Shown one piece after another: positions 1-60,789 of a DNA stretch of 64,000 bases; within the stretch, counting starts at the first letter, position 1; every line of letters begins with the position of its first letter. A program made the position numbers and the translations under genes. This DNA is from Candidatus Jettenia sp. (GTDB taxonomy: Bacteria > Planctomycetota > Brocadiia > Brocadiales > Brocadiaceae). The notes under the pieces were generated by a model. The model searched no databases. It was not told the origin of the DNA and was given only the letters and a program-made list of their open reading frames with translations. The stretch covers positions 2,757,659-2,821,658 of the forward strand of contig CP091278.1 of NCBI GenBank assembly GCA_021650895.1. The letters are read 5' to 3'.

Positions 1-969
1 ATTTGCGCCGAGTGATTTTTCTGCGTAAGCCTGAATTTGACTGTCAATGGTCAGATAAAGGTTATTTCCAGCGACTGAGGGTCTTTCGAGTATTACCTTT
101 TCAATCTGATTGTTTTTACAGGTAATTTCTTCAAATCTTTTACCACGCATTCCGCGTAATTCATTCTCATATTGTGCCTCAACGCCTGTTCTTCCTATCA
201 TATCGTTTTCGGCATAACCCTCATACAGCAATGTGGAAGTTTCTGTACCAGTACTGCTCGATGCCAAAAGAAAATTATTCCAGTTATTACTATATTCTTT
301 CCATTCATCTTTGTTCAGTTTACCCATATATCCTAAGATATGTGAGGCTGATTCTTGTTCTGGATAAACCCTTTTGGGTTTCGGAGTGATACGTATGCCG
401 GGAAAGTGATCTTGTTTAACCTCTATCTGGATAACCTTCTCCCATGCAACATCAGAAATAACCGTATGATACTCGGTTTCCTCCTTAATTCTTATTTCTC
501 TGCCCGCCCTTTGCTCAACATTTTGCTTAAGTCTTTCCACCTTTTCAACGACCTGTTTTACGTTGTTCAATAGCTTAGTCTGTGGAATTTCTAATAATCC
601 GGATAATCTTTTTAACCATACATCCTGATTTTCGTGGCACTCTATACACGATTTTTTTGTCTGGTTGTGTATCTTTAAATCGGTAATACGGGAGATTGTT
701 TTATTACTATGGGTACTGTAGCAATAGAGTAGGTATTTATATTGTACCGAGACATCAAAGATGTGCTGGTCCATAGCCAATACCCTTCCGTTTCTGTCAA
801 AAATGGAACCTCGTGTAGTTTCCAGGAGGGATGTATCTATGCGGCGACTGTTGGAGATACCTTTATATTTATCACCTTCGATAATTTGAAGTTGAAAAAG
901 GCGGACGGTAATGCCAATAAAAAGCAGGGCGAAAATAATTAATATAATTTTAAACCGGTAGGGATACAT
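1..969 (-). CDS. mrdA: Penicillin-binding protein 2 (peptidoglycan transpeptidase), N-terminal part, cut by window edge
   Basis: Only the first 323 codons are inside the window; the transpeptidase domain lies off the left edge. Read on the minus strand from ATG at 969, the protein starts with a short cytoplasmic tail and one membrane segment (about residues 8-24). The class B PBP N-terminal signature ETTRGSIFDRNGRVLA follows, then the pedestal region. It ends in the SAVGNNLYLTID-like strand that precedes the catalytic domain of this family. Family knowledge: PBP2 cross-links peptidoglycan during elongation together with MreBCD and RodA. It is the last visible gene of the mreB-mreC-mreD-mrdA operon, 3 bases after mreD. 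Oddity: residues 108-112 read CIECH, a c-type haem attachment motif, inside the pedestal (see findings). Identity is firm; the function of the insert is unknown. Confidence 0.9.
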   Translation of the reverse strand, partial: MYPYRFKIILIIFALLFIGITVRLFQLQIIEGDKYKGISNSRRIDTSLLETTRGSIFDRNGRVLAMDQHIFDVSVQYKYLLYCYSTHSNKTISRITDLKIHNQTKKSCIECHENQDVWLKRLSGLLEIPQTKLLNNVKQVVEKVERLKQNVEQRAGREIRIKEETEYHTVISDVAWEKVIQIEVKQDHFPGIRITPKPKRVYPEQESASHILGYMGKLNKDEWKEYSNNWNNFLLASSSTGTETSTLLYEGYAENDMIGRTGVEAQYENELRGMRGKRFEEITCKNNQIEKVILERPSVAGNNLYLTIDSQIQAYAEKSLGAN

Positions 970-7440: not shown

Positions 7441-9399
7441 ATGGATACAGCAAATAAGCTGATTCTGTGGTATCGAAAGTACATACGTCCATTCTTCAGC
7501 GAGCACGAACCCGACAAGCTGGTGGAGTTCGACAAGGATTGCCAGAGAATCGAGAGAATTGAGGCTGACCTTCAGAAAAAATTGCCAGTATGTTTTTTAG
7601 GCGGGAGCGGCGTCGGAAAGAGCACACTGATTAATGCTCTTGTTTTCGGTAAAGATAGCTACATACCCTCGGGAGGCATTGGCCCATTGACCGCACAAGC
7701 ATTGGAGGTGTGTTATGGAGAACAGCCATCGTTCGAGGTACATTACCATTCAGTTAAAAAGATCCATCAAGTGGTCTCTGGTCTGGAATGGAACTACCAA
7801 GCTCAACTTGGGTATCAAGAAGGCAATAATGCCGAGGTAAAGTCTGATGATTTAGGACTGGATGTTTCGGACGATAAAGAAATCAACCAATTACTCGCAC
7901 TTGCGAACGATAACACTGACTACAAGGATAATCGGATCGTAGAAATCCGGAAGCAAGCCACCCTGATGATTGCCGGAAATCAGGATGAAAACCGTGAAAT
8001 GCCGTATCTGATCGACGCGCTGCTGCTGGCTTATGATAAACCAGTAAAATACGGCTCGCAAATCTTACCGGATGACCAGGAACGAATTAAGGGCATTCAG
8101 AAGGCGCTTCAATATGGGAAGAACAAACAGCCTCTGGTTTGCTCAGAGGGTAGTGATCCCAATTTTCGAAATCTCTTGTGCGAACATGCGACCGGTTACC
8201 TCGCTCCGCTCATCCGTGATCTTAAGGTCAAGTGGAATGTCGAAATGTTGAAGGGAGGATTGACTTTGGTAGATCTGCCTGGCGTTGGAGTTGTCGGAGA
8301 TGTGAAAGCGGAAGTGACTGAAAAATGGATTCGTGAACACGCAAAGGCCATCGTTCTGGTTGTTGATACACGTGGAGTGCGGGAGACTGAGGCAGAATTG
8401 CTTCGCAATAGTGGTTTCTTAAACCGCCTACTCCATGCAGCTCATGATCCCTCATCTGATCCAGTTGTTTTAATGGTTGCGGTTACACATACGGATAAAA
8501 TTGCCGAGGAGGAGTATCTCAATAACCGGACAAATGCTCCCAGCAAGAAGCGGGCCGATTATTTCGCAGAAGTATGTGATAAGGTCAGGAATAGCATCAC
8601 CAATCAGGTTAAAGAGCAGCTTACAAATGTTTGGAAAGCGACTACGGGTTTAAGTGATGTTAAAACTGAAGTCGTAAAGGAAATTGTTGCCAAACTCCAG
8701 ATTTTTCCTGTTTCTGCACCTCAATATCGGCGATTCTTGATGAATGACGAAGAGGAAAGACCATTTATTAAGACGGCCGAACAAAGCAACATTCCGCAAA
8801 TGCTCGACGCCTTAAGGCATGTGGTCCAAATCAGGGCAGCAGATCGGCAACGGCACATCGAAGCGGAGGAACAGCGTTTTTTTGATCGCCTCCGTGCGCG
8901 TATTAACATCATTAAAACCCAGTGGGAAGAAGAAACGCGTGCGGAGGCAGAAGCAAAGGAACTACGCGGTGCTTTGGAACATTTCATTGAGGTGGAGAAG
9001 TTGCGACTGGATTTCAGTAACCGTCAGGGCACTTTCCGAGAGTTCCTCAAAAACACACTTCCAACACTAATTGAAAAGGTTGTAACTGATGCAAGTGTCA
9101 ATGCCCGCAAAGAGATTTTTGCTTTTCTTAAGGAGCTAAGAAATGCTCACTGGAATACTTTACGGGCGGCAGTTACCAGAGAAGGAACGTTCTATGGTTC
9201 TCGACATATAAATCTGCCTCACGATTTTGCACTGAGATTCGAAGAACCGATTGCGGAAGTGTGGGGAAAGGTATTGCTCCGTGAAATCCGCAAACGGACA
9301 AAAGAACATGCTGATGATTCTGTTAAGTACGTGGAACAGATACTTTCTTGGGCTAATCAGCAAGGGGCAAAGCTGAAGACTAATGTGCTCGAAGCATAA
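7441..9399 (+). CDS. Dynamin-like large GTPase, main part (ends at an in-frame TAA)
   Basis: 652 residues from ATG at 7441 (AAGGA lies 9 bases upstream). GTPase motifs are clear: P-loop GGSGVGKST at residues 54-62, G3 DLPGVG at 278-283, and THTD at 349-352 in the G4 position. The G1-G3 spacing of about 220 residues is much longer than in Ras-type GTPases and contains a helical insert with acidic patches. After the GTPase domain come long charged helices (IEAEEQRFFDRLRARI...), as in dynamin-type stalks. The frame stops at TAA 9397-9399 and resumes at once in the same frame in the next entry, so the two pieces were probably one protein of about 810 residues. The overlap with the downstream helicase suggests one operon. 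A defence role is inferred from family and partner. No close named relative is recognised. Confidence 0.82.
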   Translation: MDTANKLILWYRKYIRPFFSEHEPDKLVEFDKDCQRIERIEADLQKKLPVCFLGGSGVGKSTLINALVFGKDSYIPSGGIGPLTAQALEVCYGEQPSFEVHYHSVKKIHQVVSGLEWNYQAQLGYQEGNNAEVKSDDLGLDVSDDKEINQLLALANDNTDYKDNRIVEIRKQATLMIAGNQDENREMPYLIDALLLAYDKPVKYGSQILPDDQERIKGIQKALQYGKNKQPLVCSEGSDPNFRNLLCEHATGYLAPLIRDLKVKWNVEMLKGGLTLVDLPGVGVVGDVKAEVTEKWIREHAKAIVLVVDTRGVRETEAELLRNSGFLNRLLHAAHDPSSDPVVLMVAVTHTDKIAEEEYLNNRTNAPSKKRADYFAEVCDKVRNSITNQVKEQLTNVWKATTGLSDVKTEVVKEIVAKLQIFPVSAPQYRRFLMNDEEERPFIKTAEQSNIPQMLDALRHVVQIRAADRQRHIEAEEQRFFDRLRARINIIKTQWEEETRAEAEAKELRGALEHFIEVEKLRLDFSNRQGTFREFLKNTLPTLIEKVVTDASVNARKEIFAFLKELRNAHWNTLRAAVTREGTFYGSRHINLPHDFALRFEEPIAEVWGKVLLREIRKRTKEHADDSVKYVEQILSWANQQGAKLKTNVLEA

Positions 9400-9876
9400 G
9401 TGATGGTTATCAAGGCGGATGCTCAAAAGATCAACACCGTTGGCAAGGAGGCAGTTGATGAACTCCGTGAAGAAGTCAAGAATAGTTTGATTAGGAAGAT
9501 TGAGAATCCGATTCGAAATCGATGCAAGAGGTTTGTTAAAAAAAATGAACATAATGGGCCTGGAGTAAAGCGGCGAATTTTGGATCTTTTTAATGAGCTA
9601 GCCGATGAAGCAATTGAAGCAGCAACAGTTCCTGCGATTGAACTGCTAACTGAGCGTTTTCGCGGAGTAGAGAAACAAATTCTCGATGTATTCAATGAGC
9701 ATCAAGAATATAACGATCCAATCACTGCCGCGTCAAACGCAATAGTTACATCCCATGAAGAGAAACTTCGCCGGTCGGATAAGAAGAAGCGCGAAACCGT
9801 GCTTGGTGCTCTCACAACTATGATCAGCATGTGTCCACTACCGTGGGAAGAAAAAACTGAGGAACTAGCAGCATGA
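9400..9876 (+). CDS. C-terminal continuation of the dynamin-like GTPase, after an in-frame stop
   Basis: 158 codons in exactly the same frame as the preceding entry, separated only by one TAA. It opens GTG ATG (9400, 9403). The product is a charged helical protein with no GTPase motif of its own: KNSLIRKIENPIRNRCKRF, then heptad-like helices and a basic stretch RRSDKKKRETVLGAL. It reads naturally as the end of the stalk/effector part. No good ribosome site precedes it (the upstream bases are CTCGAAGCATAA), so it may be made by readthrough, by termination-reinitiation at TAAGTGATG, or not at all. Its stop overlaps the helicase start (ATGA at 9873-9876). Confidence 0.6.
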   Translation: MMVIKADAQKINTVGKEAVDELREEVKNSLIRKIENPIRNRCKRFVKKNEHNGPGVKRRILDLFNELADEAIEAATVPAIELLTERFRGVEKQILDVFNEHQEYNDPITAASNAIVTSHEEKLRRSDKKKRETVLGALTTMISMCPLPWEEKTEELAA

Positions 9877-12635
9877 GTCAGAATTTAGGACCAATCGTCA
9901 ATCGTGACGGCTCAATCTACGCTATTTTGCGGGAACACGAAGAGTGGGGTATCCGCACGGTCGATTTGGTTGCTCCTCCGAGCCGCCTTTGGGCGGATCA
10001 ACCGAATGCCAAAGCCATAGTTGAGTCGGGTGTAGACTGCAATCGTGTATCATCGAGTCCAACACCTGCGGCATTGCTTCGTGCACTTCCCGAAGGTGAT
10101 AATTGGACAGCGCAAACCAAGCGGAGTGTTGCCCGATTGTTTGTTCATTATTTAATTTGTGAAGATCCACAGCGTCGCATGGACGCACGTAAAGTCATAA
10201 CGCTTTCACACCAGGTGAGTCTTGTTCAACATATCTTGGAGAATTCTCATTTGCGGCGGGTTCTTATTGCTGATGAAGTAGGGCTAGGTAAGACAGTTGA
10301 AGTTGGTCTGCTTGTAAAGCAATTGATGGAAGCAAAGCCAGGACTTCGTGTTTTATATTTGGCTCCGGCCCGTCTGGTGCCTAACGTTGCCAGAGAGTTC
10401 GATCGCCTGGAATTAAATTTTCGTCTTTGGCGTGCGAGTGAGTCTGATGCGAGATTGTCCGATTCTCGAATCATCGCAAGCATTCATCGGGCGGTTCACA
10501 GCAACAACTACCCTAAAATTCTCGCAACTGAGCCTTGGGATGTTATTGTTGTTGACGAGTGCCACCACCTGTCTGATTGGGCTGCCGGAGGTGGTGATCC
10601 GGTCGAGAAATTTCGTTTAGTGCGAGAATTAGTTGCCAGACAAAAATCTGATTCACGGCTTATTTTGTTGAGTGGAACTCCACATCAGGGTCACATTCAT
10701 CGATTTGATAATCTTCTCGGTTTATTACGGCGACAAAACGAGTCTTCGGAATCTGTTGCAGGGCGTGTCATCTATCGAACAAAGGAGGACGTTCAGGATT
10801 GGAATGGAAAACCTTTGTTTCCTTTAAGACAGGTCAATGAGCCGTTGGTCATTGATCTGGGAACATCTTACAAACAGTGGATGAAGAACATTCACGAGTT
10901 CTATCGCCCTGCCAAGCACAGTTGTGATGGAGAAACTCCACGCCAGCGAGCGGCGGGTTGGCGGTGTGCCCAGGCGCTTCAGTGGGCCGCTTCCAGTCCA
11001 CAGGCTGGTCTTGGTTATTTGGTGCGTCAGGCGGTCCGCGCCGGATGGAAATTGGAAGATGGTCACTTAAGGGAGGCCATTCTGGCTTTGAGGCCGTATC
11101 GGAATGGTCCTCTTGCTGAATCCGCTGAAGAACTTTTCTCGAGAATTGTCAAGGAAGTCTCACGGCAGGTAGAGTATGGTGACGTTGAAGACATTGAGGA
11201 AGAGGATTCTGCCAAGACCAAAATATCTTCCAGTCAACACATCCAGTTGGATTCCTTGCTACGAGAAGGCGTGGTTTTAGTTCAGAAATCTCCCGATATA
11301 AAATGGGAATTTTTACGAGAAAAGATTCTCGATAGTTCAAACGGCGAGAAGGTAGTGCTATTTGCCCAACCAATCGAGACGGTTACTGCGTTAGCACGAT
11401 ATCTTGAGCAGCGAACGGGTGTTAAGCCAGCGATTATCATCGGTGGACAAAGCGATATTGAGCGGCGCAAAGAAGAAGAGAGATTTTGGCAAAAGAATGG
11501 TCCTCAATTCTTGGTATCTTCGCGAGCAGGTGGTGAAGGCATCAATTTACAGGTAGCACGACGGCTTGTTCATATAGACGTGCCTTGGAATCCGATGGAG
11601 CTTGAGCAAAGAGTTGGACGAGTTCACCGGTTCGGATCGAAGAAAACCATTTTGGTTGATACCCTTGTTGTAAAAGACAGTCGTGAGCGGGACGCTTATC
11701 GAATTGCGCGTGAGCGTTTACGTTTAATCGCCAGTTCGATTGTTGGTCCAGAACGCTTCGAGACAATTTTCTCACGCGTGATGTGTTTGGTATCGCCAGA
11801 GGAACTACAGGAAGTATTGATTGGTAATGCAATCGCTCCACTGAGTGATGAAGAACAGCAACGTGTTTCCGCCATGGTTGAGGGAGGATTTAAGGCATGG
11901 AACGAGTTTCATGAAAAATACTCTAAGGTTCAAAACGAAATCCGATCTCAGAATCCTGGCCTTACAGACTGGAACGACATAAAGCGATTTCTAGAGGTTT
12001 ATATAGACGCAAAGCAGGCCAATGGTTACTCACTTTCTCGTTTTGAACGACGAAATGGTTTGATTGAAGCAGTCGACGAAGCCGCTGAAGTTGTAGAGCT
12101 ACCTACAGGCCATCGATTGATATTAGGTGATGTGGAAGGGGCGCTTAGCGAAGGACCTGATGGACAAATGGTGGAGCGAGCAGGTCTCAATCTTCCAATA
12201 ATAGCCGATGTTCTCCGTCGGTGTGCATTTCCGAAGATGACCGCGGGTGCTGCCTATCTCAAGGCAACCGAATCTGATGTGATTCCTCTCCGCCTTGATA
12301 AAGATCCATGCGGCTTCTTGTGGTTTTTACGGCAAGTTTTGCAAGCAGAACAACAAGCAGGATGGAATGAACAGAGTTCCAATTTGTTCTGTTATAGAAT
12401 TTTCAGTAATGGTTTGGTTGCGGAAGTAAGAGGAGCAGAAAAAGCTACTGTGATGAGATGTTTGAACAATGCAACCCCCCGATTGCGTCCAGACGTTGCA
12501 GAAGAATTCATAAATAGTATAGTTCATCACGAGCAGGCATTGATTCAGAGCTTGCGGCGGCCGAGTGATGAGCAGATTCTATCTGGTATTCGGTATGCGA
12601 TCATACCACTCATTGCGGCCGTGCTAACACAATGA
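9873..12635 (+). CDS. SNF2/RapA-type helicase-like ATPase
   Basis: 920 residues. Superfamily 2 motifs: motif I DEVGLGKT at about residue 134, motif II DECHH at about 228, motif III LSGTPHQ, motif V SRAGGEGINLQ, and motif VI QRVGRVHRFG. The order and the Gln/Arg-rich motif VI are SNF2-like and resemble RapA/HepA and the DISARM DrmD group. About 130 residues precede the helicase core; about 300 residues of unassigned sequence follow it. No nuclease or methylase motif was seen. The start ATG overlaps the GTPase stop by 4 bases (ATGA), so translation is coupled. The partner suggests a DNA-sensing or translocating module that controls the GTPase; this is inference. Confidence 0.88.
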   Translation: MSQNLGPIVNRDGSIYAILREHEEWGIRTVDLVAPPSRLWADQPNAKAIVESGVDCNRVSSSPTPAALLRALPEGDNWTAQTKRSVARLFVHYLICEDPQRRMDARKVITLSHQVSLVQHILENSHLRRVLIADEVGLGKTVEVGLLVKQLMEAKPGLRVLYLAPARLVPNVAREFDRLELNFRLWRASESDARLSDSRIIASIHRAVHSNNYPKILATEPWDVIVVDECHHLSDWAAGGGDPVEKFRLVRELVARQKSDSRLILLSGTPHQGHIHRFDNLLGLLRRQNESSESVAGRVIYRTKEDVQDWNGKPLFPLRQVNEPLVIDLGTSYKQWMKNIHEFYRPAKHSCDGETPRQRAAGWRCAQALQWAASSPQAGLGYLVRQAVRAGWKLEDGHLREAILALRPYRNGPLAESAEELFSRIVKEVSRQVEYGDVEDIEEEDSAKTKISSSQHIQLDSLLREGVVLVQKSPDIKWEFLREKILDSSNGEKVVLFAQPIETVTALARYLEQRTGVKPAIIIGGQSDIERRKEEERFWQKNGPQFLVSSRAGGEGINLQVARRLVHIDVPWNPMELEQRVGRVHRFGSKKTILVDTLVVKDSRERDAYRIARERLRLIASSIVGPERFETIFSRVMCLVSPEELQEVLIGNAIAPLSDEEQQRVSAMVEGGFKAWNEFHEKYSKVQNEIRSQNPGLTDWNDIKRFLEVYIDAKQANGYSLSRFERRNGLIEAVDEAAEVVELPTGHRLILGDVEGALSEGPDGQMVERAGLNLPIIADVLRRCAFPKMTAGAAYLKATESDVIPLRLDKDPCGFLWFLRQVLQAEQQAGWNEQSSNLFCYRIFSNGLVAEVRGAEKATVMRCLNNATPRLRPDVAEEFINSIVHHEQALIQSLRRPSDEQILSGIRYAIIPLIAAVLTQ

Positions 12636-12737: not shown

Positions 12738-14588
12738 TTGTAACGGATGTTCACCCCAGGGAAAATACACAAGTAAAGAAGATAAGGTTGATTAAGAGTA
12801 TTTTGCCAGTAAATATGTAGTCACTAATAATATGGTTATTTACGAATTATATGCTTGAAAATTAAAAGTAATATGGTATATTGTGGTAGTCATGCATATT
12901 GTCGAAAACACCTCAAAATCCGGCAAGAAAATTTATCGTTCTATCCTTTTGCGGGAATCATATCGGGAAGATGGGAAGGTCAAAAAGCGCACGATTGCAA
13001 ACCTATCGAATTGTACTGCCGGGGAGATCGAAGCGATAAAACTTGCCCTTCGCCACAAAGAAGACCTCAGTGCATTGGGAGCATTATCAGAATCGGTAGA
13101 ACTGCAAGAGGGACACTCTGTGGGGGCACTCTGGAGTGTGTACCAGGTGGCAAAGGAATTAGGAATAGAGAAGGCCCTGGGCAATAGCTTTGAAGGGAAG
13201 CTGGCATTATGGCAGGTACTAGCAAGGGTACTCAATCAGGGCTCAAGGTTATCGGCGACAAGACTGGCACAGGTGCATGCCGTAGGTGATGTATTGGATA
13301 TGGGTCGTGGATTTGATGAGAATGATTTGTACGATAATCTGGCATGGGTATCCGAGAATCAGGAACGCATAGAGCGAAAGCTCTTTGAGCTGAGAAGAAG
13401 AGACACCAGGCCCAAGCTGTTTCTCTATGATGTGACGAGCAGGTATTTGGAGGGAGATCAGAACTATTTTGGTCAGTACGGGTATAATCGAGACGGCAAG
13501 AAGGGCAAGAAACAGATCGTCATAGGTCTGTTGTGTGATGAGTCCGGAGAGCCGGTATCAACAGAGGTTTTTACGGGCAATACCCAGGATCAGAAGACCT
13601 TTGAGTCTCAGGTAAAGAAAATGGCAGAGCGGTTTGGGTGCAAGGAGGTAACGATTGTAGGAGACCGGGGAATGATCAAGACGATGCACATCGAACGGTT
13701 ACCGGAAGGATTTCATTACATAACGGCGATAACCAAGCCACAGATAGAAGCGTTGATAAAGAGAGGCATTCTGCAACTGGAGTTATTTGAAGAAAAGCTC
13801 TGCGAGGTAAAGGATGAAGGGACAAGATATATTCTCAGGCGCAATCCCACCAGAGCAAAAGAGATGGCAGAGACCCGCAGAGCAAAATTCCAGAGTATAG
13901 AGAGTTACATCGAGAGGAAGAATGAGTATCTCAGAGAGCATCAAAGGGCATCAGTATCAAAGGCACTGGAGGCAACACAGGAAAGACTCAGGAGGCTGAG
14001 GCTTGAGGGCTGGGTAGGGATAAAAGAAGAAGGCAGGATGTTGAAGCTAGAGAGCAATGAGGGAGCACTTCAGGAGGAATCGTGTCTTGATGGCTGTTAT
14101 GTGATCAAGACAGACTTGAAGGAGACTGAGGCAGATAAGTATCTGGTACATGAGCGGTACAAGGACTTATCAGAAGTGGAGAAGGTGTTTCGGGACTGTA
14201 AGAGAGTGAATCTTGTGTATGTCAGAAAAGAGAAGAGTACGCAAGGCCATGTCTTTATGGTAATGCTTGCACACATGATCCTGCGGAGGCTCCGCACTGC
14301 ATGGGCAGGGTTTGAACTGACCGTACAGGAAGGTCTCCAGCAGTTGGCAACCATTTGCACCATGGAAGTGATCCTGAAAGGCCAACAAGCACGTTGCCAG
14401 AAGATACCACAGCCACGAGAACAATCGAGGAACTTATTAGAGGCGTTGCAGATCAAGTTACCCGCGGTATTGCCAAGGCGAAACATTCGGGTAGTCATCA
14501 GAAAAAAACTTACCAATCGACGAATAAACCAGCAAAACTAAGGCTTTCGCAACATCTTATTTCTCTCTTTGAGGTGAACATCCATTGT
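12738..14588 (+). mobile_element. IS1634-type insertion sequence inside an IS3-family remnant
   Basis: The transposase gene is framed by imperfect ends: TTGTAACGGATGTTCACC at 12738-12755 and its inverted match at 14573-14590 (14 of 18 positions agree). Exact ends are uncertain by a few bases. At the right end the sequence passes straight into an IS3-family integrase-core fragment, so the element apparently jumped into that gene; no left half of the IS3 gene is visible. A 90-bp piece of the same or a sister transposase is found at 35798-35889. Confidence 0.7.
12892..14541 (+). CDS. IS1634-family transposase (DDE type)
   Basis: 549 residues from ATG at 12892; a GTG at 12883 is an in-frame alternative. 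The IS1634/IS4-like layout is visible: an N-terminal part (YREDGKVKKRTIANLS), then LFLYDVTSRYLEGDQN carrying the first acidic residue, TIVGDRGMIKTMHI carrying the second, and near the end VEKVFRDCKRVNLVYVRK with the final Glu of the DDE set in the Y-x3-E-like context. Length is normal, and no frame defect is seen, so the enzyme may be active. Confidence 0.85.
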   Translation: MHIVENTSKSGKKIYRSILLRESYREDGKVKKRTIANLSNCTAGEIEAIKLALRHKEDLSALGALSESVELQEGHSVGALWSVYQVAKELGIEKALGNSFEGKLALWQVLARVLNQGSRLSATRLAQVHAVGDVLDMGRGFDENDLYDNLAWVSENQERIERKLFELRRRDTRPKLFLYDVTSRYLEGDQNYFGQYGYNRDGKKGKKQIVIGLLCDESGEPVSTEVFTGNTQDQKTFESQVKKMAERFGCKEVTIVGDRGMIKTMHIERLPEGFHYITAITKPQIEALIKRGILQLELFEEKLCEVKDEGTRYILRRNPTRAKEMAETRRAKFQSIESYIERKNEYLREHQRASVSKALEATQERLRRLRLEGWVGIKEEGRMLKLESNEGALQEESCLDGCYVIKTDLKETEADKYLVHERYKDLSEVEKVFRDCKRVNLVYVRKEKSTQGHVFMVMLAHMILRRLRTAWAGFELTVQEGLQQLATICTMEVILKGQQARCQKIPQPREQSRNLLEALQIKLPAVLPRRNIRVVIRKKLTNRRINQQN

Positions 14589-14933
14589 AGAGAGGCATTG
14601 GAGGATGCCCTGGGAAAAGGATGTCCAGAGATATTTAACAGTGATCAGGGTTCTCAGTTTACCAGTAATGATTTTACCGGGATTCTCTTGGGTAAAGGAA
14701 TAGCGATTAGTATGGATGGTCGGGGCAGATGGTTTGATAGCATTTTTATGGAAAGGCTTTGGAGGAGTGTGAAGTATGAGGAGGTATATATAAAAGACTA
14801 TCAGGAATGCAAAGATGCCTGAGAGGGGTTGGAGAAGTATTTTTCATTTTATAATAATCGAAGGTACCATCAATTGCCTGGATAGAGAACACCCTATGAG
14901 GTTCATTATGGAGTTTTTCGTGAGAATGAGTAA
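14586..14933 (+). pseudogene. IS3-family transposase, 3' remnant of the integrase core
   Basis: Translation in one frame gives CREALEDALGKG, then FNSDQGSQFTSNDFT, SMDGRGRWFDSIFMERLWRS and, after TGA at 14820, YFSFYNNRRYHQLPG. TAG (in LPG*RTPYEVHYG) and a final TAA at 14931 follow. This is the rve domain of IS3-group OrfB with the D-x-E part present but two internal stops and no N-terminal half. The 5' side is cut by the IS1634-type element. Confidence 0.85.
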
Positions 14934-16279: not shown

Positions 16280-16398
16280 ATATAAGTTAAATATATGTTT
16301 TTACAAACTAAAGCTCTAAAAGGAGTTTAACCCGATGTAGCTATATGCAAGGCTTTCCAAGCCATGCAGGCTTTACCTTATCCATGGAGGGGTATACT

Positions 16399-18957
16399 GT
16401 GAAAAGGTGTAAGGTCTTTGGAATACCGGTACTTCTTTTGTTATTTGTATTGCTACCCAATATTGCTTCTGTTGAACGAGGGGAAGATGCTATAGCTGAT
16501 ACGGTAAGCGACCCTCCGTCTTTTTTTATTTTTCGAGTATCTCCAGCAGGCGATAATTTTGTGGCTGATACGGTAAGGAACCCTTTAGATTACGAACAAG
16601 AAAGGAATTTCCTGCAACAGGTAATTCCTTCTGAGGATTGGTCTTACCACTCTGAAACTGGTCCCTCTCATCACATGACAGATAAAAGAATGGGAGACTC
16701 TTATCATGGGTATAAAGAGTCTCATCATTCTGGTCAAGAGAGGAGTAGGGTGCCAGGAATGGAAACACATTCATCATATCAAACCTTTCATAGAAAAAGA
16801 CCATATACGAAAAGTAGTGCAACAAATACCTTAGCAGTTGGATGGCAGATAAAGACAGTAGATGCTCCAAAATATTTTAATTATTTATCTTCAAGGGCCA
16901 TTGCTGTTGATACCAGCAACCATCCTCATATTGCTTATGGTGGTGACCGTCTTTATTATGCCTGCCATGATGGAAATGCATGGAATTATCAGATCGTGGA
17001 TTTTTCGCCGGGAGTTGGTTTCTATGCATCTATTGCCATTGATCTCTGGGGCAAGGTACACATTAGTTATTTCGACTATAGTAACGAAGACCTCAAGTAT
17101 GCCACGAATATCTCTGGATCATGGGTAATAGAGACGGTGGACAGTGAGGGATGGGTAGGTGAGTATACCTCCCTGGCGATGGGTAGTTCAGGCAAGGTGC
17201 ACATCAGCTATTATGATTATACCGGGGGTAATCTCAAGTATGCGACAAATGCCTCAGGGTCATGGGTAAAGAAGACGGTGGACAGTGGTGGAGATGTAGG
17301 TTGGTATACCTCCCTGGCGTTGGATAGTTTCGGCAAGGTACACATCAGTTATTTTGATCAAAGTAAGGGCAGCCTCAAGCATGCGACGAATGCCTCCAGA
17401 TTATGGGTAACAGAGACGGTAGACAGGAGTGGATGGGTAGGCGGATATACCTCCCTGGCGTTGGATAGTTTCGGCAAGGTACACATCAGTTATTTTGATC
17501 AAAGTAAGGGCAGCCTCAAGCATGCGACGAATGCCTCCAGATTATGGGTAACAGAGACGGTAGACAGGAGTGGATGGGTAGGCGGATATACCTCCCTGGC
17601 GGTGGATAGTTTAGACAAAGTACACGTCAGTTATTTTGACTATAGTAACGATAACCTCAAGTATGCTACGAATTCCTCTGGATCATGGGCAGCAGAGACG
17701 ATAGATAGCGAAGGATACGTAGGTTGGTATACCTCTCTGGCGGTGACAAGTTTAGGCAAGGTGCACGTCTGCTATTATGATTGGGGTAAAGATGACCTCA
17801 AGTATACCACGAATGCCTCCGGCTCGTGGGTAAAGAAAACGATGGACCGCCGTGGAAATGTAGGCCGGTATGCTGCCCTGGCATTGGATAAATCGGGCAG
17901 GGTGCACATAAGCTATTATGATTGGAGTAAGGGTATCCTCAAGTATGCCAGCAATGTCTCTGGCTCAAGGGTAAAGAAGATTGTGGACAGTAGTGAAGAT
18001 GTGGGCCTGAATACTTCCCTGTCATTGGATGGTTCAGGCAAGGTACACATCAGCTACTATGATGATGCTACTAAAGACCTCAAGTATGCCACGAATGTAT
18101 CTGGATCATGGATAATAGAGACAGTGGACAGTGAAGGGTCGGTAGGTGCGTGTACCTCCCTGGCATTGGATAGTTCAGGCAAGGTACACATTAGCTACTA
18201 TGATGCTACTAATAGAGACCTCAAGTACGCGACGAATGCCTCAGGATCATGGGTAAAGAAGACGGTGGACAGTGGTGGAGATGTAGGCCGGTATACCTCC
18301 CTGGCGCTGGATAGTTTCGGCAAGGTGCACATGAGCTATTATGATTGGAGTAAGGGTAATCTCAAGTATGCTACGAATGTCTCTGGTTCATGGGTAACAG
18401 AGACGGTAGATAGGAACGGATATGTAGGTTTGTATACCTCTCTGACATTGGATGATTCAGGTAAGGCACACATCAGCTACTACGATGCTACAAATAAAGA
18501 CCTCAAGTATGCGACGAATGCCTCGGGGTTATGGGTAAAGAAGACGGTGGACAGTAATGGAGATGTCGGTGCGTATGTTTCCCTTGTGGTGGATAACTTC
18601 GGCAAGGTACACATCAGCTATTATGATGCTACCAATAAAGATCTCAAGTATGTGACGAATGCCTCAGGCTTATGGGTAAAGAAGACGGTGGACAGTGGTG
18701 GAGATGTAGGCCGGTATACCTCCCTGGCGCTGGATAGTTTCGGCAAGGTGCACATCGGCTATTATGATGATGTTAGGGGTAACCTTAAGTATGCGACGAA
18801 TGCCTCTGACTCATGGGTAAGGAAGACAGTGGACAGTGGTGGAGATGTAGGCCGGTATACCTCCCTGGCAGTGGAGAGTTCTGATAAGGTACATATTAGC
18901 TATTATGATAATACTAATAGAGACCTCAAATATGCCCGATATGCCCGAAAGCGTTAG
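16399..18957 (+). CDS. Exported protein built of about fourteen 47-residue repeats
   Basis: The chosen GTG start at 16399 has GGAGGGG 6 bases upstream; ATGs at 16384 and 16345 are in frame but lack such a site. The product has 852 residues. A signal peptide follows the start (KRCKVFGIPVLLLLFVLLPN), then about 130 low-similarity residues, then tandem units of the form GKVHISYYD-x5-LKYATN-x-SGSWV-x3-VDS-x-G-x-VG-x-YTSLALDS. I count 14 units plus one degenerate leading unit; the last ends LKYARYARKR. Each unit predicts about four beta strands, so one or two beta-propellers or a long beta solenoid is plausible. No anchor, enzyme motif or named family is recognised. Flanks are transposon debris. 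A surface or matrix role is a guess. Confidence 0.8.
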   Translation: MKRCKVFGIPVLLLLFVLLPNIASVERGEDAIADTVSDPPSFFIFRVSPAGDNFVADTVRNPLDYEQERNFLQQVIPSEDWSYHSETGPSHHMTDKRMGDSYHGYKESHHSGQERSRVPGMETHSSYQTFHRKRPYTKSSATNTLAVGWQIKTVDAPKYFNYLSSRAIAVDTSNHPHIAYGGDRLYYACHDGNAWNYQIVDFSPGVGFYASIAIDLWGKVHISYFDYSNEDLKYATNISGSWVIETVDSEGWVGEYTSLAMGSSGKVHISYYDYTGGNLKYATNASGSWVKKTVDSGGDVGWYTSLALDSFGKVHISYFDQSKGSLKHATNASRLWVTETVDRSGWVGGYTSLALDSFGKVHISYFDQSKGSLKHATNASRLWVTETVDRSGWVGGYTSLAVDSLDKVHVSYFDYSNDNLKYATNSSGSWAAETIDSEGYVGWYTSLAVTSLGKVHVCYYDWGKDDLKYTTNASGSWVKKTMDRRGNVGRYAALALDKSGRVHISYYDWSKGILKYASNVSGSRVKKIVDSSEDVGLNTSLSLDGSGKVHISYYDDATKDLKYATNVSGSWIIETVDSEGSVGACTSLALDSSGKVHISYYDATNRDLKYATNASGSWVKKTVDSGGDVGRYTSLALDSFGKVHMSYYDWSKGNLKYATNVSGSWVTETVDRNGYVGLYTSLTLDDSGKAHISYYDATNKDLKYATNASGLWVKKTVDSNGDVGAYVSLVVDNFGKVHISYYDATNKDLKYVTNASGLWVKKTVDSGGDVGRYTSLALDSFGKVHIGYYDDVRGNLKYATNASDSWVRKTVDSGGDVGRYTSLAVESSDKVHISYYDNTNRDLKYARYARKR
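17320..17601. repeat. Perfect 141-bp tandem duplication inside the repeat protein gene
   Basis: Bases 17320-17460 and 17461-17601 are identical across all 141 positions. Other units of the gene agree only in part. 141 bp equals one 47-codon repeat, so the frame is kept. This points to very recent unit duplication by slippage or unequal recombination. Confidence 0.9.
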
Positions 18958-19139: not shown

Positions 19140-19666
19140 ATGGTTAAATTCAAACCATTTCATGAATTCCAGAAACCCCTGATGGGGTTTACTCCCGAAT
19201 AGCGTTTTTAGATTACATCGAAACGGTATTACCCAAAGACCATCTCTGCAGATTAGTCAAAGAGTTCGTATTCTCGTTAGATACAGAAGCGATAGAGGTG
19301 AAATATTCTTTTTTAGTCCACGTACCTATCATCCGAAGTTACTCTTCAGTGTGCTCTTTTATGGGTATGTAATAGGAGTACGCAGTAGTAGAAAGTTAGA
19401 AGAGACAAAAAGATGACACCTGCAAAGTGGATCCTGAACAAGAGGCATTACAGGAGAAGTTGCCAGACCGTACGTACCTGAAAAAGAAGATAGAAGAAGC
19501 ACTGGAGGTGATGAAGGAGGAGGAGGTAAGGAAAAGAGAAGATTAATCTTACCGAAACTTTCTCTTACGAGGACTGGAAAAGGTCTGTGCGGAATTTAAG
19601 TTGATGGGTATTGGATGGAATTTAAAAAAGATGCTGAAAATGGGAATAAGACTCGCCACGGCATAA
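19140..19666 (+). pseudogene. IS1182-family transposase remnant with internal deletion
   Basis: From ATG 19140: MVKFKPFHEFQKPLMGFTPE, a stop, then FLDYIETVLPKDHLCRLVKE and STYHPKLLFSVLFYGYVIGV with RSSRKLEE, which is the typical N-terminal part of this family. After several frame changes the C-terminal block appears: RNFLLRGLEKVCAEFKLMGI, then WNLKKMLKMG. The whole catalytic middle is missing: about 530 bp remain of a gene that is normally about 1.4-1.6 kb. Confidence 0.8.
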
Positions 19667-26368: not shown

Positions 26369-28418
26369 CTAGCGTGACTTTACTAAAGTAAAGGCAATAC
26401 AAAGTCATAAAGTATTGACAGATAAGGAGAAAGCGATTGTTTTGTGTGTATACACTGATATATAGGGTAAGAGGCGAAAAAGGATGGAGTAGAGAAGTGG
26501 ATTGGAATTAGGCGTATACATGCGATATTTACTGATAAAATAAGAAATATCCTTCTCAAGAGACAGGGAAAAATACTTGACTAAAATACTGTGAAAGTGG
26601 TAATGTATACACAACCTATGGCAACCATACAAAAACGAGTATCACGGGGACGTACCTACTGGAGTATTGTTGAATCACGCAGGGTTAATGGCAAACCAAG
26701 ACCTGTTATCCTGGAATATCTCGGTACTGCTGAAGCACTTCTCAAAAGGCTCCAGCAGGACGGTGTTTCCAGGAAAGTACGCAGCTATAGTCATGGCAGT
26801 GTTTCTCTTGTTCTGAGGATAGCAGAGGAACTCCACATTGTGCAGGCCATAAATAGACAGATAAAAGGGAAACAAATCCGTGATGGGTTTACCGTTGGTG
26901 GTTCATTACTGCTGGCAGCAATGGGAAGGATATGTCAGCCTACCAGTAAAAGAGGGTGGTATGAGGGATGGGCAAGGCATACGAGTCTTTCTTACCTGAT
27001 AGGGATGTCACTGAAGAAGCTTGATAGCCAACATTTTTGGAACCAGATGGATACTCTTGACCAAGAGGCAATACCGTCAATCGAAGAAGAGGTAATCAAG
27101 ATGCTCATCGAGAAGCAGAACATAACCCTTGATACCTTGCTGTGTGATACGAGTAATTTTTTTACGTACCTTGATTCTGCCAATGAGCAGTGCCGTGTTG
27201 CTCAAAGAGGATATAATAAACAAAAGAGAATGGACTTGAAACAGTTTGGATTATTTCTTGTAGTTTCTCGCCAGGATCAGATACCTCTTTTGCACAAGGT
27301 CTATCAAGGCAATCTCTCGGATAAGACCATTTTTCAGGAACAATTCAAAGATGTCGTAAAGAGATTGAAAGCTCTTTGTGGGTCGGTAGAGGACATGACA
27401 GTAGTGTTTGACCAGGGAAATAACTCCAAAAAGATAGTCCAGGAGGTAAACAACACGGTGAGCTTTATCGGCTCTGTGTCTCCGTATCAGCAGAGACCCC
27501 TTCTGGAGGAGGCAAATAGATCGATGAGCACCATAACGCTGAAGGGTCGCAGGGTTGATTGTTATCGAGTAAGAACCCTTCTGTGGCAGATGGATCTCAC
27601 CCTGATCGTGTATATTTCAGAGAAACTGCGTCAGGGACAATCCCGAGGACTTGAACAGAGCATAAAAAAACTCTTTGGCAAACTCAGCAAACTCCAAGAG
27701 AACATCAGAGTACCGACCCAAAGGGGCAAGAAAAGAACGCCTGAGGAGTTAGAAAAGAAGATCACCACACTGATCGCATCGAGTGTACCCGAAGGTCTTA
27801 TTGGCTGGCAGATACACAGCAGGGGGAAAGGTGATGCGTTTGAGCTGAACTATTGGATCAATCACCAGCAGTTAGAGTTTTTGAAAGACCAGTGGTTTGG
27901 ACGCCGTATCTTAATGACGAATCGTCATCAGTGGAGTACCGAGGAGATTATCCTGGCGTATTGGGGACAGCATAAGGTGGAATATATCTTTAAAAATCTC
28001 AAAAACCCATTTCACTTAAGCCTCCGGCCTCAGTATCACTGGACGGATCACAAGATTGAAGTCCATGGATTTCTCTGTGTCCTTGCCTTTCTTCTGGGTA
28101 TGGTTGCTTATAAAAGAGCACAAGAACAAGCTCATTTTCGGGGCTCAGTTCATACCTTATTGGAACACCTCTCATCAATACGACTTGCAACACTGATTGA
28201 AAATCCTTCAGAGAAAACGAAAGGAACCTATAAGGCGACCTACTGTCTTGAGCACATGGATGAAGACCTTCAAGCCCTTGCAGACGCTTTAGGAATATCC
28301 CATAAAAGAGATAAAATTACCATCCCCTTCAGTGTATACACGTAAAAAATTCTCTTTCTTTACTATTGCCAATGTCTTATGACTTATTTTGGCCTTTACT
28401 TTAGTAAACTCACGCTAG
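26369..28418 (+). mobile_element. Complete IS1634/IS4-type insertion sequence
   Basis: Ends are CTAGCGTGACTTTACTAAAG at 26369 and the inverted CTTTAGTAAACTCACGCTAG ending at 28418. About 27 bases pair with one or two mismatches (one C/G difference near base 10). The ends also contain an inner palindrome, CTTTACT-AAAGTAAAG. One full-length transposase gene lies between. No unambiguous target duplication is seen (TTAG on the left, AAAT on the right). It sits about 110 bp upstream of the riboswitch-promoter region of the metalloprotease. Confidence 0.85.
26618..28345 (+). CDS. IS1634-like transposase (DDE type)
   Basis: 575 residues from ATG 26618 (MATIQKRVSRGRTYWSIVES, the usual start); GTG 26591 and ATG 26603 are in-frame alternatives, none with a clear ribosome site. 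The DDE features are LLCDTSNFFTYLD, VVFDQGNNSKKIVQE and a late YWGQHKVEYIFKNLKNPFHL with the final Glu. It differs clearly from the transposase at 12892, so it is a second type of IS. Intact frame and intact ends suggest an active element. Confidence 0.85.
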   Translation: MATIQKRVSRGRTYWSIVESRRVNGKPRPVILEYLGTAEALLKRLQQDGVSRKVRSYSHGSVSLVLRIAEELHIVQAINRQIKGKQIRDGFTVGGSLLLAAMGRICQPTSKRGWYEGWARHTSLSYLIGMSLKKLDSQHFWNQMDTLDQEAIPSIEEEVIKMLIEKQNITLDTLLCDTSNFFTYLDSANEQCRVAQRGYNKQKRMDLKQFGLFLVVSRQDQIPLLHKVYQGNLSDKTIFQEQFKDVVKRLKALCGSVEDMTVVFDQGNNSKKIVQEVNNTVSFIGSVSPYQQRPLLEEANRSMSTITLKGRRVDCYRVRTLLWQMDLTLIVYISEKLRQGQSRGLEQSIKKLFGKLSKLQENIRVPTQRGKKRTPEELEKKITTLIASSVPEGLIGWQIHSRGKGDAFELNYWINHQQLEFLKDQWFGRRILMTNRHQWSTEEIILAYWGQHKVEYIFKNLKNPFHLSLRPQYHWTDHKIEVHGFLCVLAFLLGMVAYKRAQEQAHFRGSVHTLLEHLSSIRLATLIENPSEKTKGTYKATYCLEHMDEDLQALADALGISHKRDKITIPFSVYT

Positions 28419-35895: not shown

Positions 35896-37632
35896 TCACT
35901 CACCCTCATAATCCACATCCACCTGTATCCCCAAAAGCCTAGTCTCGTCTGATTTGTCGGTCAGTTCAAGTATTTTGTTCTTCTCGATGACTTCTTGATA
36001 CTCATTAGGTTCAAAATATCCTTTGATCGATTCCAGCATGTCTTCATTCGCAGAGATGATATATTGCAAGCCATCACCAACCGCGTGTTTATGGGCTTGC
36101 TTAAAAAGAATTGCCCTCTGACGCGGGTCCATGTTGGATAGGAGGCGGCTGTCGTGGAAGAGAAAGTTTATTTTATGGTTGTGCTTTGCCTTAAGTAGCA
36201 TCCAGTCGAAACAGAATATCTTTACTTCCCCTATCCCATCGGAGGCATCATCTTGTATTTTAGCGTTAATATTAAACCGCATCTTGTTCATGCCGTCATT
36301 GTTGGAAATTTCTATACCTCCAGGTTTGTTATCGTAAAACTCGCGAGAAAACGATCTGAATAATGCCACATTCATGTCAGTAAACGATTTTGCCCGGATT
36401 AGATAGTTATTTGTTTCGATATTCTCTTTTTCAAATTCTATCTTTATTTCTGCCAGTTTATTTTTATACTCCTGAAGGATTTCTTTATATGTCTTCAGTT
36501 TGTTCAGCCTTGTCTTCATATTTGCAAGCTGATTATTTAATGCGGTAAACTCTTCCAATGCCCCGTGGGTGTTAAGATATTGAAGAAGCTCATCCTCTCT
36601 CTTTCCCATGATAATCTTTTCTGATTCCATATCTTTTAGTCGCAACGCTAATTCCTTTTTCTCTTCAATCAACCTTTTTGTTCGATTGGAAAGAAGCTTA
36701 TTATGAAACGCCTCTACCTCTTCTACCCTTTTCACAACCATATCGCTAAGGGTTAAACGGGCTTCTTCGTACAGTTTAAGGACCGTGTCTTTCGGGATAT
36801 CAGGCTGGACGGTGAGACTTTTTTCAATATTCTTTATGGCATTCTTTAGCGCAGTAGACTGGTTTTTTAAGGCCCTTAAACGAGCAGAGCAATCGTCGGC
36901 CTCTTTCCTGATCTTTTCGTAGTCTTCAGCTACCATGTAGTTTTTCAGCCGGTTTTCTATTCTGGCGATCTGCTCATCAAGGTCTACGATGTCAATATCC
37001 ACATCACCTTCGTCGTGAAAATACGACTTGAATATCTCGTCTTCTTCTATATTCTTGCGCAGCTTGTCTGTTTTATCGTGCTGCTCTTTCAAGGTATGCT
37101 TCTTTGTGATCTTTTCTACATCCAGACCCAATAAATAGGCGTTATTCAATTGCCTTGAATATTCTTCCTCTTTGTTCACAAAATCGCAATATTCCAGGTA
37201 GCTGCTCTTCCTAGGCCGGATAAACCTTGATAACAAGGAACGAAAGGTCAACCATTTTACCGGCGTTTTCAGGCCGAATAGCCTTTCACCCATTTCGCTC
37301 CTAAACTTATCAAGCGGCATGTTTTTTCCGTTTAGTGATATTTCCTTCATATCTTTCGTATTTCTCTTTGATATGAAGGTTTCTTTGTCTATCTCGAATT
37401 CAAGCGAAAACTCCCAATCCGACAGCTTCTTTCCAAACTCTCCAATGGGATTGGATGCCAGGCAAAAGTGTACAAGTTGTATGATAAGAGATTTGCCAAG
37501 GCCGTTGTAAGTTTTCTTTTCCTCTTTGATGGTGGGGTTTTCCTTTTTACCAATAATCAGGGATATTCCTGACCTGTTAAAAGGCACTGTATGAAAGCTC
37601 TTTTTATTTGCTGACAGTCTCAACAGACGCAT
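35896..37632 (-). CDS. ABC-3C-type system: DUF2326-like SMC/ABC ATPase
   Basis: 578 residues. P-loop NGLGKS at residues 43-48 (KKTYNGLGKSLIIQLVHF). A long central coiled coil from about 200 to 430 carries many Lys/Glu heptads. A C-terminal ATPase half follows with KINFLFHDSRLLSNMDPRQR near residue 490 in the Walker B/D-loop place; His-Asp stands where Asp-Glu is usual, as in DUF2326 proteins. This matches the ATPase component of the ABC three-component systems predicted as conflict systems by comparative genomics (Aravind and colleagues). It overlaps the preceding small gene by 29 bases, so it is made from the same mRNA. Confidence 0.82.
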   Translation of the reverse strand: MRLLRLSANKKSFHTVPFNRSGISLIIGKKENPTIKEEKKTYNGLGKSLIIQLVHFCLASNPIGEFGKKLSDWEFSLEFEIDKETFISKRNTKDMKEISLNGKNMPLDKFRSEMGERLFGLKTPVKWLTFRSLLSRFIRPRKSSYLEYCDFVNKEEEYSRQLNNAYLLGLDVEKITKKHTLKEQHDKTDKLRKNIEEDEIFKSYFHDEGDVDIDIVDLDEQIARIENRLKNYMVAEDYEKIRKEADDCSARLRALKNQSTALKNAIKNIEKSLTVQPDIPKDTVLKLYEEARLTLSDMVVKRVEEVEAFHNKLLSNRTKRLIEEKKELALRLKDMESEKIIMGKREDELLQYLNTHGALEEFTALNNQLANMKTRLNKLKTYKEILQEYKNKLAEIKIEFEKENIETNNYLIRAKSFTDMNVALFRSFSREFYDNKPGGIEISNNDGMNKMRFNINAKIQDDASDGIGEVKIFCFDWMLLKAKHNHKINFLFHDSRLLSNMDPRQRAILFKQAHKHAVGDGLQYIISANEDMLESIKGYFEPNEYQEVIEKNKILELTDKSDETRLLGIQVDVDYEGE

Positions 37633-37867
37633 TATAAATTTCCCCGGATTGATTTATATTGATTGCCCCTATTGTAAAGAGGAAGTCTACAGACAGAATC
37701 AGACTGTCGAAACCGTGATGTGCTGGAAACACAGGCGTGTCGTTTATCTTTGAATACTCTTCCCATATCAGATCTATTGTCTTTGGGCGGTCTAATAATT
37801 TAAGGACATGCCCGCCCAAACCAAGAAGGGATTCGGCAAGCTTGATGTGTTTTTCAGGCAAAATCAT
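37604..37867 (-). CDS. ABC-3C system middle component (MC6-like)
   Basis: 87 residues: MILPEKHIKLAESLLGLGGH, then VLKLLDRPKTIDLIWEEYSK and SLILSVDFLFTIGAININQS. This fits the small winged-helix-like middle component of ABC three-component systems (MC6 type as I recall it). It stands between the C-terminal component and the ATPase, with 2 bases to the former and a 29-base overlap with the latter. A linker between sensor and ATPase is the expected role. Confidence 0.8.
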   Translation of the reverse strand: MILPEKHIKLAESLLGLGGHVLKLLDRPKTIDLIWEEYSKINDTPVFPAHHGFDSLILSVDFLFTIGAININQSGEIYNASVETVSK

Positions 37868-37869
37868 AT

Positions 37870-38793
37870 TTAATTCGGAATCTCAAAAATATCGCAATAC
37901 TCGAAATAATAAGACATCAAAACGAGGACTGCATCTTGTACGGCTTTCGTTTTAGAAGGACTGGCTTTTTTCAGGATGTGAAAGAATACCATATCTGATT
38001 TATCTTCGCAATTCTGAACCGGCTTTGCGCTATCTTCATAATGTCGGATGAAAATATTTTTAAGCTCTGCTTTCATAAACTTACTGTGATGTTTAAAGTA
38101 ATCATCAATGATATAATTCTGGTGGCTTCCGTAGTCAAGCAATAGTGCCACAGACTTACTCAATCTGTTAAATTGTATTTTTGCTGCGAAATCAGGATTT
38201 TGGGGTATTTTTTCCGCTTTAAAGGTAACTTCTGTTTTAAGCAAATGCTGAATTACCTCATTCATGATTGAATAATCAATATCTTGAATTTTTAGAGGGT
38301 CTGGAACGAAACCCACTATATCATTGAGTTGATGTTCTGACAGATTAATAAAGACGTCCTCTATATCCTTTGCAAGCAATGGATTACACTTTATACCTGG
38401 ATGCTTCTGTTCAAGCAGGGCAAGCCCATTTTCGATCTCAGGATATGTTCCCTTATATTTATCGTTGACAACAAAGTAATATTCCTTTATAGGCGCTATC
38501 AGCCCATTCCAATAATCTAGTAACCCATGAAACGAGTCTGTAAGTTTGGTAATTGCCGTATATACATTTGGGGCTAAATCTTCCGGTGCATAGACTTGGT
38601 AATATACACCTTTCGATTTATCAAAACCATCGTTTTTTTGGTCCCCTTCCCGTCCGTGCGGCTTTACAGGGCGGAAGTTCGGGTTGGCATGTTGCATGAC
38701 CTTGGTAAACAAATCTTGATATGCCTGCCCGTCTGACTCGTGTATTCGCAGTTTAAACATTATTCTTGCTAGGTATAGTTCTTCTTTTGTCAT
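37870..38793 (-). CDS. ABC-3C system first gene: variable sensor/effector component
   Basis: 307 residues. The N-terminal third includes FRPVKPHGREGDQKNDGFDK and SKGVYYQVYAPEDLAP, which resembles the restriction-endonuclease-like/NERD-type core with the pattern G-D-x-K-x-D-G-F and YQVY (compare the D...ExK-like Q/K motif). A helical C-terminal part follows, ending in a putative contact region (MVFFHILKKASPSKTKAVQD). Family knowledge: in ABC-3C systems this gene combines a variable N-terminal effector with a C-terminal domain that binds the middle component. Nuclease activity here is inference from the motif pattern only. Confidence 0.72.
   Translation of the reverse strand: MTKEELYLARIMFKLRIHESDGQAYQDLFTKVMQHANPNFRPVKPHGREGDQKNDGFDKSKGVYYQVYAPEDLAPNVYTAITKLTDSFHGLLDYWNGLIAPIKEYYFVVNDKYKGTYPEIENGLALLEQKHPGIKCNPLLAKDIEDVFINLSEHQLNDIVGFVPDPLKIQDIDYSIMNEVIQHLLKTEVTFKAEKIPQNPDFAAKIQFNRLSKSVALLLDYGSHQNYIIDDYFKHHSKFMKAELKNIFIRHYEDSAKPVQNCEDKSDMVFFHILKKASPSKTKAVQDAVLVLMSYYFEYCDIFEIPN

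Positions 38794-59538: not shown

Positions 59539-60789
<1,251 letters not shown>

What the first reader, a model, noticed from the sequence alone, without database searches (positions are those of the whole stretch)
16399..18957. Exported 47-residue-repeat protein under active unit expansion
Fourteen or so units with the core KVHISYYD...LKYATN and two units identical over 141 bp point to ongoing copy-number change. The outer residues of YYD-x5-LKY vary most (DATNKD, DWSKGN, DYTGGN), as in exposed loops. Phase or antigen-like variation on the surface is possible. The family is unknown to me.
Basis: partly seen in the sequence, partly recalled or inferred. Interest (0 to 1): 0.55.

Follow-up and report, generated by a model that had tools for sequence, protein, structure and literature searches.

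The report
Exported double beta-propeller with extra blade
The repeats are the blades of a secreted pair of seven-bladed protein rings common in anammox bacteria, and this copy carries one freshly duplicated blade (15 instead of 14); it looks like a recent natural change of blade number, not a phase- or antigen-switching gene.

Summary
ORF 16345-18957 (start more likely GTG 16399) has 14 in-frame 47-residue units plus a divergent first one, 15 in all. One unit is duplicated exactly (156 bp: 17305-17460 = 17446-17601). The interpretation needs changing. Counting units over 109 arrays gives 7 (47), 14 (36) or 21 (2) in 85 of 109; the window is the only 15. A 14-unit relative is predicted with high confidence (pLDDT 90.8) as two seven-bladed beta-propellers. 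Foldseek's closest solved structures are PLL-type lectins. Both other held genomes of the genus carry 14 units; window blades match theirs in order except the extra one. So this is one recent single-blade duplication, probably by exchange between 15-bp tracts repeated at 141-bp spacing. Unit gain keeps the frame, dN/dS is 0.23, and the variable loops are no faster than average between species: no support for phase or antigen variation. Across the family, 14 is kept although inner blades show no positional kinship in 613 of 666 array pairs, so arrays seem re-amplified to the same count. Ongoing propeller amplification is known; this is a clean new case in a family without a curated domain model. 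Ligand unknown; carbohydrate binding is my guess.

The parts
16386..16392 (+). ribosome-binding site GGAGGGG, 6 nt before GTG 16399
   Evidence: read; conserved upstream stretch in both sister genomes
16399..18957 (+). gene for the exported 15-blade repeat protein (the ORF is open from ATG 16345)
16399..16470 (+). hydrophobic N-terminal segment, probable Sec signal peptide (no predictor run; judged by eye)
   Evidence: alignment with the G016 ortholog
16471..16842 (+). linker, faster evolving (dN/dS 0.58 for leader plus linker)
16843..16863 (+). N-terminal strand (WQIKTVD) that would close the last blade of the second propeller
   Evidence: inferred from the 14-blade model: single 7-bladed chains align to 8..665 or 13..665, PLL lectins to 26..346
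16888..17019 (+). blade 1, divergent, with the YGGD-x-LYY signature shared by most 14-blade relatives
17020..17301 (+). blades 2-3
17302..17583 (+). blades 4 and 5, the duplicated pair; both correspond to the single blade 4 of G016
17305..17601 (+). 156-bp perfect direct repeat (17305-17460 = 17446-17601) bounded by TATACCTCCCTGGCG at 17305, 17446 and 17587
17584..18954 (+). blades 6-15; the last blade has three strands and needs the N-terminal strand
19198..19400 (+). IS1182-type transposase remnant downstream (flank only)
   Evidence: E 1.4e-4, below cut-off

Best explanation
The gene encodes an exported protein that folds as two tandem beta-propellers built from 47-residue, four-stranded blades. 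Its ancestral state in the genus is 14 blades (7 + 7), with the N-terminal strand closing the last blade of the second ring. In this genome one blade was duplicated exactly, most likely by slippage or unequal exchange between 15-bp tracts that recur at 141-bp spacing, giving 15 blades. The protein keeps its frame; the extra blade must be housed as 8+7 or 7+8, or left unpacked. Shown: sequence, counts, orthology, duplication. Predicted: fold. Inferred: mechanism of duplication, and function as a cell-surface or matrix binding module, perhaps for carbohydrate.
For: Unit counts in 109 arrays: 7 in 47, 14 in 36, 21 in 2; 15 only in the window. The G016 ortholog has 14. The two G017 contig ends abut at L116 5756/5757, giving 9+5=14. 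Window blades match G016 blades in order, with blades 4 and 5 both closest to G016 blade 4 at 84% DNA identity. Perfect 156-bp repeat and 15-bp boundary tracts. A 14-blade relative (L063) is predicted at pLDDT 90.8, pTM 0.78, with 56 strands. Best solved matches are PHL/PLL seven-bladed lectins by Foldseek (E 2e-15) and, by VIA-align, CylK (Z 36.2, 2.6 A over 320 residues) and PLL4 (Z 30.3, 2.6 A over 303 residues, model 26..346). Purifying selection, dN/dS 0.23.
Against: The 15-blade model itself is weak (pLDDT 73.9, pTM 0.48), so where the extra blade goes is unresolved; its alignment also placed the extra unit at the wrong blade, which confounds that model. Counts are not strictly multiples of seven: 24 of 109 arrays are not (window 15; the others 3-6 or 10-13), some explained by stops or contig ends but others apparently complete, e.g. 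L068 13, L159 12, L128 11, L172 6, L149 3. No reads to exclude an assembly error. In G016 the fifth blade is out of register by a 2-residue insertion, so window blade 6 scored best on blade 2 in the ungapped comparison.
Confidence: 0.85

Rival explanations
1. A surface antigen whose unit number is switched often: population-level copy-number variation changes the exposed surface.
For: An exact unit duplication is present; the BC loop (unit positions 20-24) and positions 43, 45 and 1 are the most variable between blades.
Against: Unit number is 14 in both sister orthologs and 14 in three paralog sets across the genus; dN/dS 0.23; loop residues change between species at the average rate; gain or loss of 141 bp never shifts the frame.
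Confidence: 0.07
2. The 141-bp duplication is an assembly error and the real gene has 14 blades.
For: 14 is the rule in orthologs; perfect tandem repeats are a known assembly hazard; the J. ecosi assembly breaks inside this same gene (contigs C21 and C59).
Against: The contig is a single 3.82-Mb sequence, and repeat errors more often collapse units than add them (established knowledge). Not tested: no reads.
Confidence: 0.12
3. The repeat forms an open solenoid or a single large ring rather than two 7-bladed propellers.
For: The 15-unit model is of low confidence, so it does not settle the arrangement by itself.
Against: Peaks of unit number at 7, 14 and 21; single 7-bladed solved chains superpose on model residues 26..346, and others on the N-terminal strand plus the second half, Z 28-36.
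Confidence: 0.03

Closest known systems
Highly repetitive beta-propellers under ongoing amplification (Pereira and Lupas 2022, PMC9218822; abstract, section 14 part 1, section 18 and passages read)
   Same: Near-identical blades, counts peaking at 7 and 14 (there for WD40-like), local duplication of one blade (silk-moth DPPY), a 15-blade WD40 case modelled as 7+8.
   Different: Different blade sequence; 'planctomyc' and 'BNR' do not occur in the main text; here 14-unit orthologs in two sister genomes polarise the single-blade event.
PLL/PHL seven-bladed lectins of Photorhabdus (PMC6943638, passages read)
   Same: Seven four-stranded blades; best Foldseek match to solved structures; one largely conserved Trp per blade here, Trp stacking on sugar there.
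   Different: 7-15% sequence identity in the structural alignments; tandem doubles here; N-terminal strand closure; no ligand evidence.
BNR_4 (PF15892) and GH-type propellers such as BT3686 (that BT3686 belongs to BNR_4/GH145 is recalled)
   Same: Weak sequence hits in 2 of 13 aligned members; structural match with 14-20% identity.
   Different: No single stretch passes on its own; no match in the whole-genome search of G000; window protein itself not hit.
14-blade repetitive propeller 2YMU and double propellers such as Elp2
   Same: Two rings in one chain; whole-length alignments (Elp2 606 residues, rmsd 9.0; 2YMU 566 residues, rmsd 10.2).
   Different: WD40 sequence (recalled); relative placement of the rings differs (large rmsd).

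Membership tests
beta-propeller fold (tandem, 7-bladed) | four antiparallel strands per repeat, closed ring | tested here: met
   56 strands = 14 x 4 in the L063 model, pLDDT 90.8; superposition on 7-bladed chains Z 28-36. Prediction, not experiment; the window's own 15-blade model is weak.
beta-propeller fold (tandem, 7-bladed) | repeat number set by ring closure (7 or multiples) | tested here: met
   85 of 109 arrays; the window itself, 15, departs from it
recently amplified (repetitive) beta-propeller | blades more alike within the protein than to other homologs' blades | tested here: met
   within-array similarity exceeds the cross-array diagonal in 610 of the 613 non-positional pairs; positional kinship is kept to the G016 ortholog
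PLL-type lectin | sequence similarity to PLL/PHL | tested here: not met
   phmmer lists no PLL chain at E<=1; profile of 11 relatives finds no PDB chain at E<=1
PLL-type lectin | sugar bound between blades | not testable with these tools
   needs a binding assay or structure
BNR_4 (PF15892) | score over Pfam cut-off | tested here: not met
   window protein not hit; L027 and L064 exceed the cut-off only as a sum of weak repeats
phase-variable surface antigen | frame or copy-number switching between close relatives and fast loop evolution | tested here: not met
   in-frame 141-bp unit, stable 14 in sisters, dN/dS 0.23; variation within a population not testable here

The most novel reading that the evidence does not exclude
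In this family the number of blades is what selection keeps, not the blades: inner blades have been replaced or homogenised separately in many lineages, yet arrays return to 7, 14 or 21, and the window gene is caught off-count at 15 shortly after a duplication, with 14-blade orthologs in sister species as the before-state. It would then fold as an 8+7 or 7+8 pair, or carry a loose blade on its way to being deleted or tolerated.
Probability: 0.4. Interest if true: 0.6.

Novelty: new member of a known kind. Interest (0 to 1): 0.42.

Why it matters
How a closed ring changes its number of repeats is an open question: each step passes through an off-count form. Here a 15-blade gene and 14-blade orthologs in two sister species bracket one such step, and a widespread repeat family that no Pfam or NCBIfam model covers convincingly shows peaks at 7, 14 and 21. 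It also names a set of probably exported proteins, seven loci in this genome and present in 26 of 33 genomes of the anammox family searched, that may matter for cell-surface or granule-matrix contacts.

Tried and rejected
EipB_like and other Pfam hits to the window protein were rejected: no stretch passes on its own and hits scatter over unrelated families. NCBIfam hits are far below cut-off. PDB sequence search gives only a weak beta-agarase match, E 0.003, and none for the profile. No phage record encodes a relative. Literature: 'Jettenia + extracellular + beta-propeller' 0 papers; 'double beta-propeller + anammox' 0; 'HISYYD' 0; 'anammox + hypothetical protein + tandem repeat + surface protein' 1, an Isosphaeraceae genome paper seen only in the listing. 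The statement that the repeat is undescribed rests on these searches of an open-licence library only.

The 15-blade fold model was not used to decide where the extra blade sits: low confidence, and the alignment put gaps at the wrong blade. VIA-align rows for it cover mainly residues 20-463.

Rows dropped before the blade count: 11 identical duplicates, 11 arrays running off a locus end, 5 next to a unit-bearing ORF (frame break), 5 with low mean unit score. Arrays of fewer than three units were not listed. Remaining arrays are not independent: orthologs from several genomes are among them. Not all matches were fetched: its list was cut ('more matches are not listed') and I took regions for the main loci.

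Full report
Observation. The ORF 16345-18957 carries 14 units of exactly 47 residues and, before them, a shorter divergent unit. In the strand register the protein reads: N-terminal strand WQIKTVD, then 15 units of three strands each joined by a fourth, ending on a three-strand unit. Two neighbouring units are identical over 156 bp (17305-17460 = 17446-17601). The start is probably GTG 16399, with GGAGGGG six bases upstream and the corresponding start in the ortholog.

Where it lies. The window is part of a single 3.82-Mb contig. One genome of the same genus, G017, has a contig of the same length (46,319) as SULG01000021.1, Candidatus Jettenia ecosi, and the arrays in L062 and L117 have the same counts and spacings, so the window is a Jettenia-type anammox bacterium. 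I recall, from no call, that the four-contig G016 resembles J. caeni. The same genome holds six further loci with this repeat. They include a 14-unit array with a carboxypeptidase-regulatory-like C-terminal domain (L027), a 14-unit array near the end of a 2386-residue ORF with bacterial Ig-like domains (L030), a plain 14-unit protein (L031), and 7-unit arrays, one behind SBBP repeats (L028). Relatives were found in 26 of 33 genomes of the family, 24 of 294 genomes drawn from the phylum, and 54 named loci including Nitrospirae, Deltaproteobacteria, SAR202 and several archaea.

What it is. A profile of the unit was used to count units per array. Of 109 arrays left after filtering, 47 have 7, 36 have 14 and 2 have 21; the window's 15 is unique, and no counted array has 8, 9 or 16-20. 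The other 23 have 3-6 or 10-13; some are broken by stops or contig ends, but several seem complete (L068 13, L159 12, L128 11, L172 6, L149 3). This pattern is expected of a ring that closes at seven. AlphaFold2 gives the 14-unit protein of L063 at pLDDT 90.8 and pTM 0.78 with 56 strands. PLL-type lectins superpose on residues 26..346 (Z 28-30), and other 7-bladed chains use the N-terminal residues plus the second half up to 665 (virginiamycin B lyase 2z2o Z 32.2, 289 residues, 2.4 A; CylK Z 36.2, 320 residues, 2.6 A). I read this as a first ring closed by itself and a second ring closed by the N-terminal strand; it is an inference from alignment ranges. The window's own model is poor (pLDDT 73.9).

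What happened here. Blade by blade, the window and its G016 ortholog align in order at 80-94% DNA identity where the register is shared; window blades 4 and 5 both correspond to G016 blade 4 (84% each), and G016 has 14 in all. One blade (window 6, G016 5) is thrown out of register by a 2-residue insertion and did not score best on its counterpart, but the full alignment pairs them. G017 is split over two contigs that meet exactly at L116 5756/5757, which gives 9+5 = 14. The extra blade is therefore derived in the window's lineage. The tract TATACCTCCCTGGCG stands at 17164, 17305, 17446 and 17587, 141 bp apart, so exchange or slippage between neighbouring tracts adds exactly one unit. With dS 0.34 and dN 0.08 between the species, about 17 differences would be expected in 141 bp had the duplication been as old as the split (my arithmetic); none is seen, so the duplication, or a later conversion, is much younger. 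The gene's flanks differ: homology to G016 ends at 16284 and 18963, and of the G016 flanks only short pieces are found elsewhere in the window's genome. IS1634 and IS3 (remnant) genes lie upstream, an IS1182 remnant downstream.

Is it variation of phase or antigen type? Units are 47 codons, so the frame never changes. dN/dS over the repeat is 0.23, and 0.58 over the leader. The five loop residues after YYD vary much between blades, yet between species they differ in 11 of 60 places, the same rate as the whole unit (103 of 564; my sums). Three paralog sets also keep 14 units across the genus. So the loops differ from blade to blade but are held within each blade.

A pattern in the family. For 37 arrays of 14 (the window counted without its duplicate), blades 2-13 were compared pairwise. 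Of 666 pairs, 26 show strong positional kinship (z>4), by spacing and similarity all between evident orthologs; 27 are intermediate; 613 show none, and in 610 of these 613 the blades of one protein resemble each other more than the matching blades of the other. The first blade is different: its YGGD-type signature is found in 28 of 39 arrays of 14 and in 1 of 50 arrays of 7 (these counts keep duplicates). So inner blades seem to have been amplified or homogenised lineage by lineage while the total stays 14. Loss of positional signal by plain divergence is a weaker alternative, as within-protein similarity exceeds between-protein similarity.

Known or new. Pereira and Lupas (PMC9218822; abstract, section 14 part 1, section 18 and passages read) describe continuous amplification of propellers from single blades, peaks at 7 and 14 for WD40-like forms, one local blade duplication in a silk moth, and a 15-blade protein modelled as 7+8. 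The present case is of that kind. What I add are the family, the sister-species before-state, and the count-without-position pattern. Afanasieva et al. (PMC6805158) was seen in the search listing only. Function: probably exported; the nearest folds are lectins and carbohydrate-active propellers, nearly every blade has a conserved Trp, and paralogs carry adhesin-type domains; I put carbohydrate or matrix binding at about 0.4.

Noticed in passing
window 35896-38793: Two genes matching the candidate defence pair PDC-M68B (327 bits) and PDC-M68A (44 bits), with a PIN-like small ORF just beyond (the last by eye).
   Followed up: partly
window 7441-12635: A GTPase (dynamin-like by eye), a small ORF and an SNF2-type helicase related to BrxHI/DrmD/DpdE (about 165 bits, far below the curated NCBIfam cut-offs): possible uncharacterised defence island.
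   Followed up: partly
window 12883-14541, 14355-14822, 26591-28345: Two IS1634-family transposases and an IS3 remnant near the repeat gene; the gene sits at a different place from its orthologs in G016/G017.
   Followed up: partly
window 59539-60789: tRNA-Met gene overlapping the end of a phage-type integrase ORF on the other strand: likely attachment site of an integrated element (integrase judged by eye).
   Followed up: no
L029 2581-3899 (-): A 7-unit paralog split into 3 + 4 units by a frame break in the window's own genome: perhaps a decaying copy.
   Followed up: partly
L030 2395-9552 and L121 2148-11825: Giant ORFs (2386 and 3226 residues) that share the 14-blade C-terminal part but have very different N-terminal parts in two Jettenia genomes.
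   Followed up: no
L064, L066, L076: Arrays of 21 blades (7+14 in L064 and L066), suggesting triple propellers.
   Followed up: no
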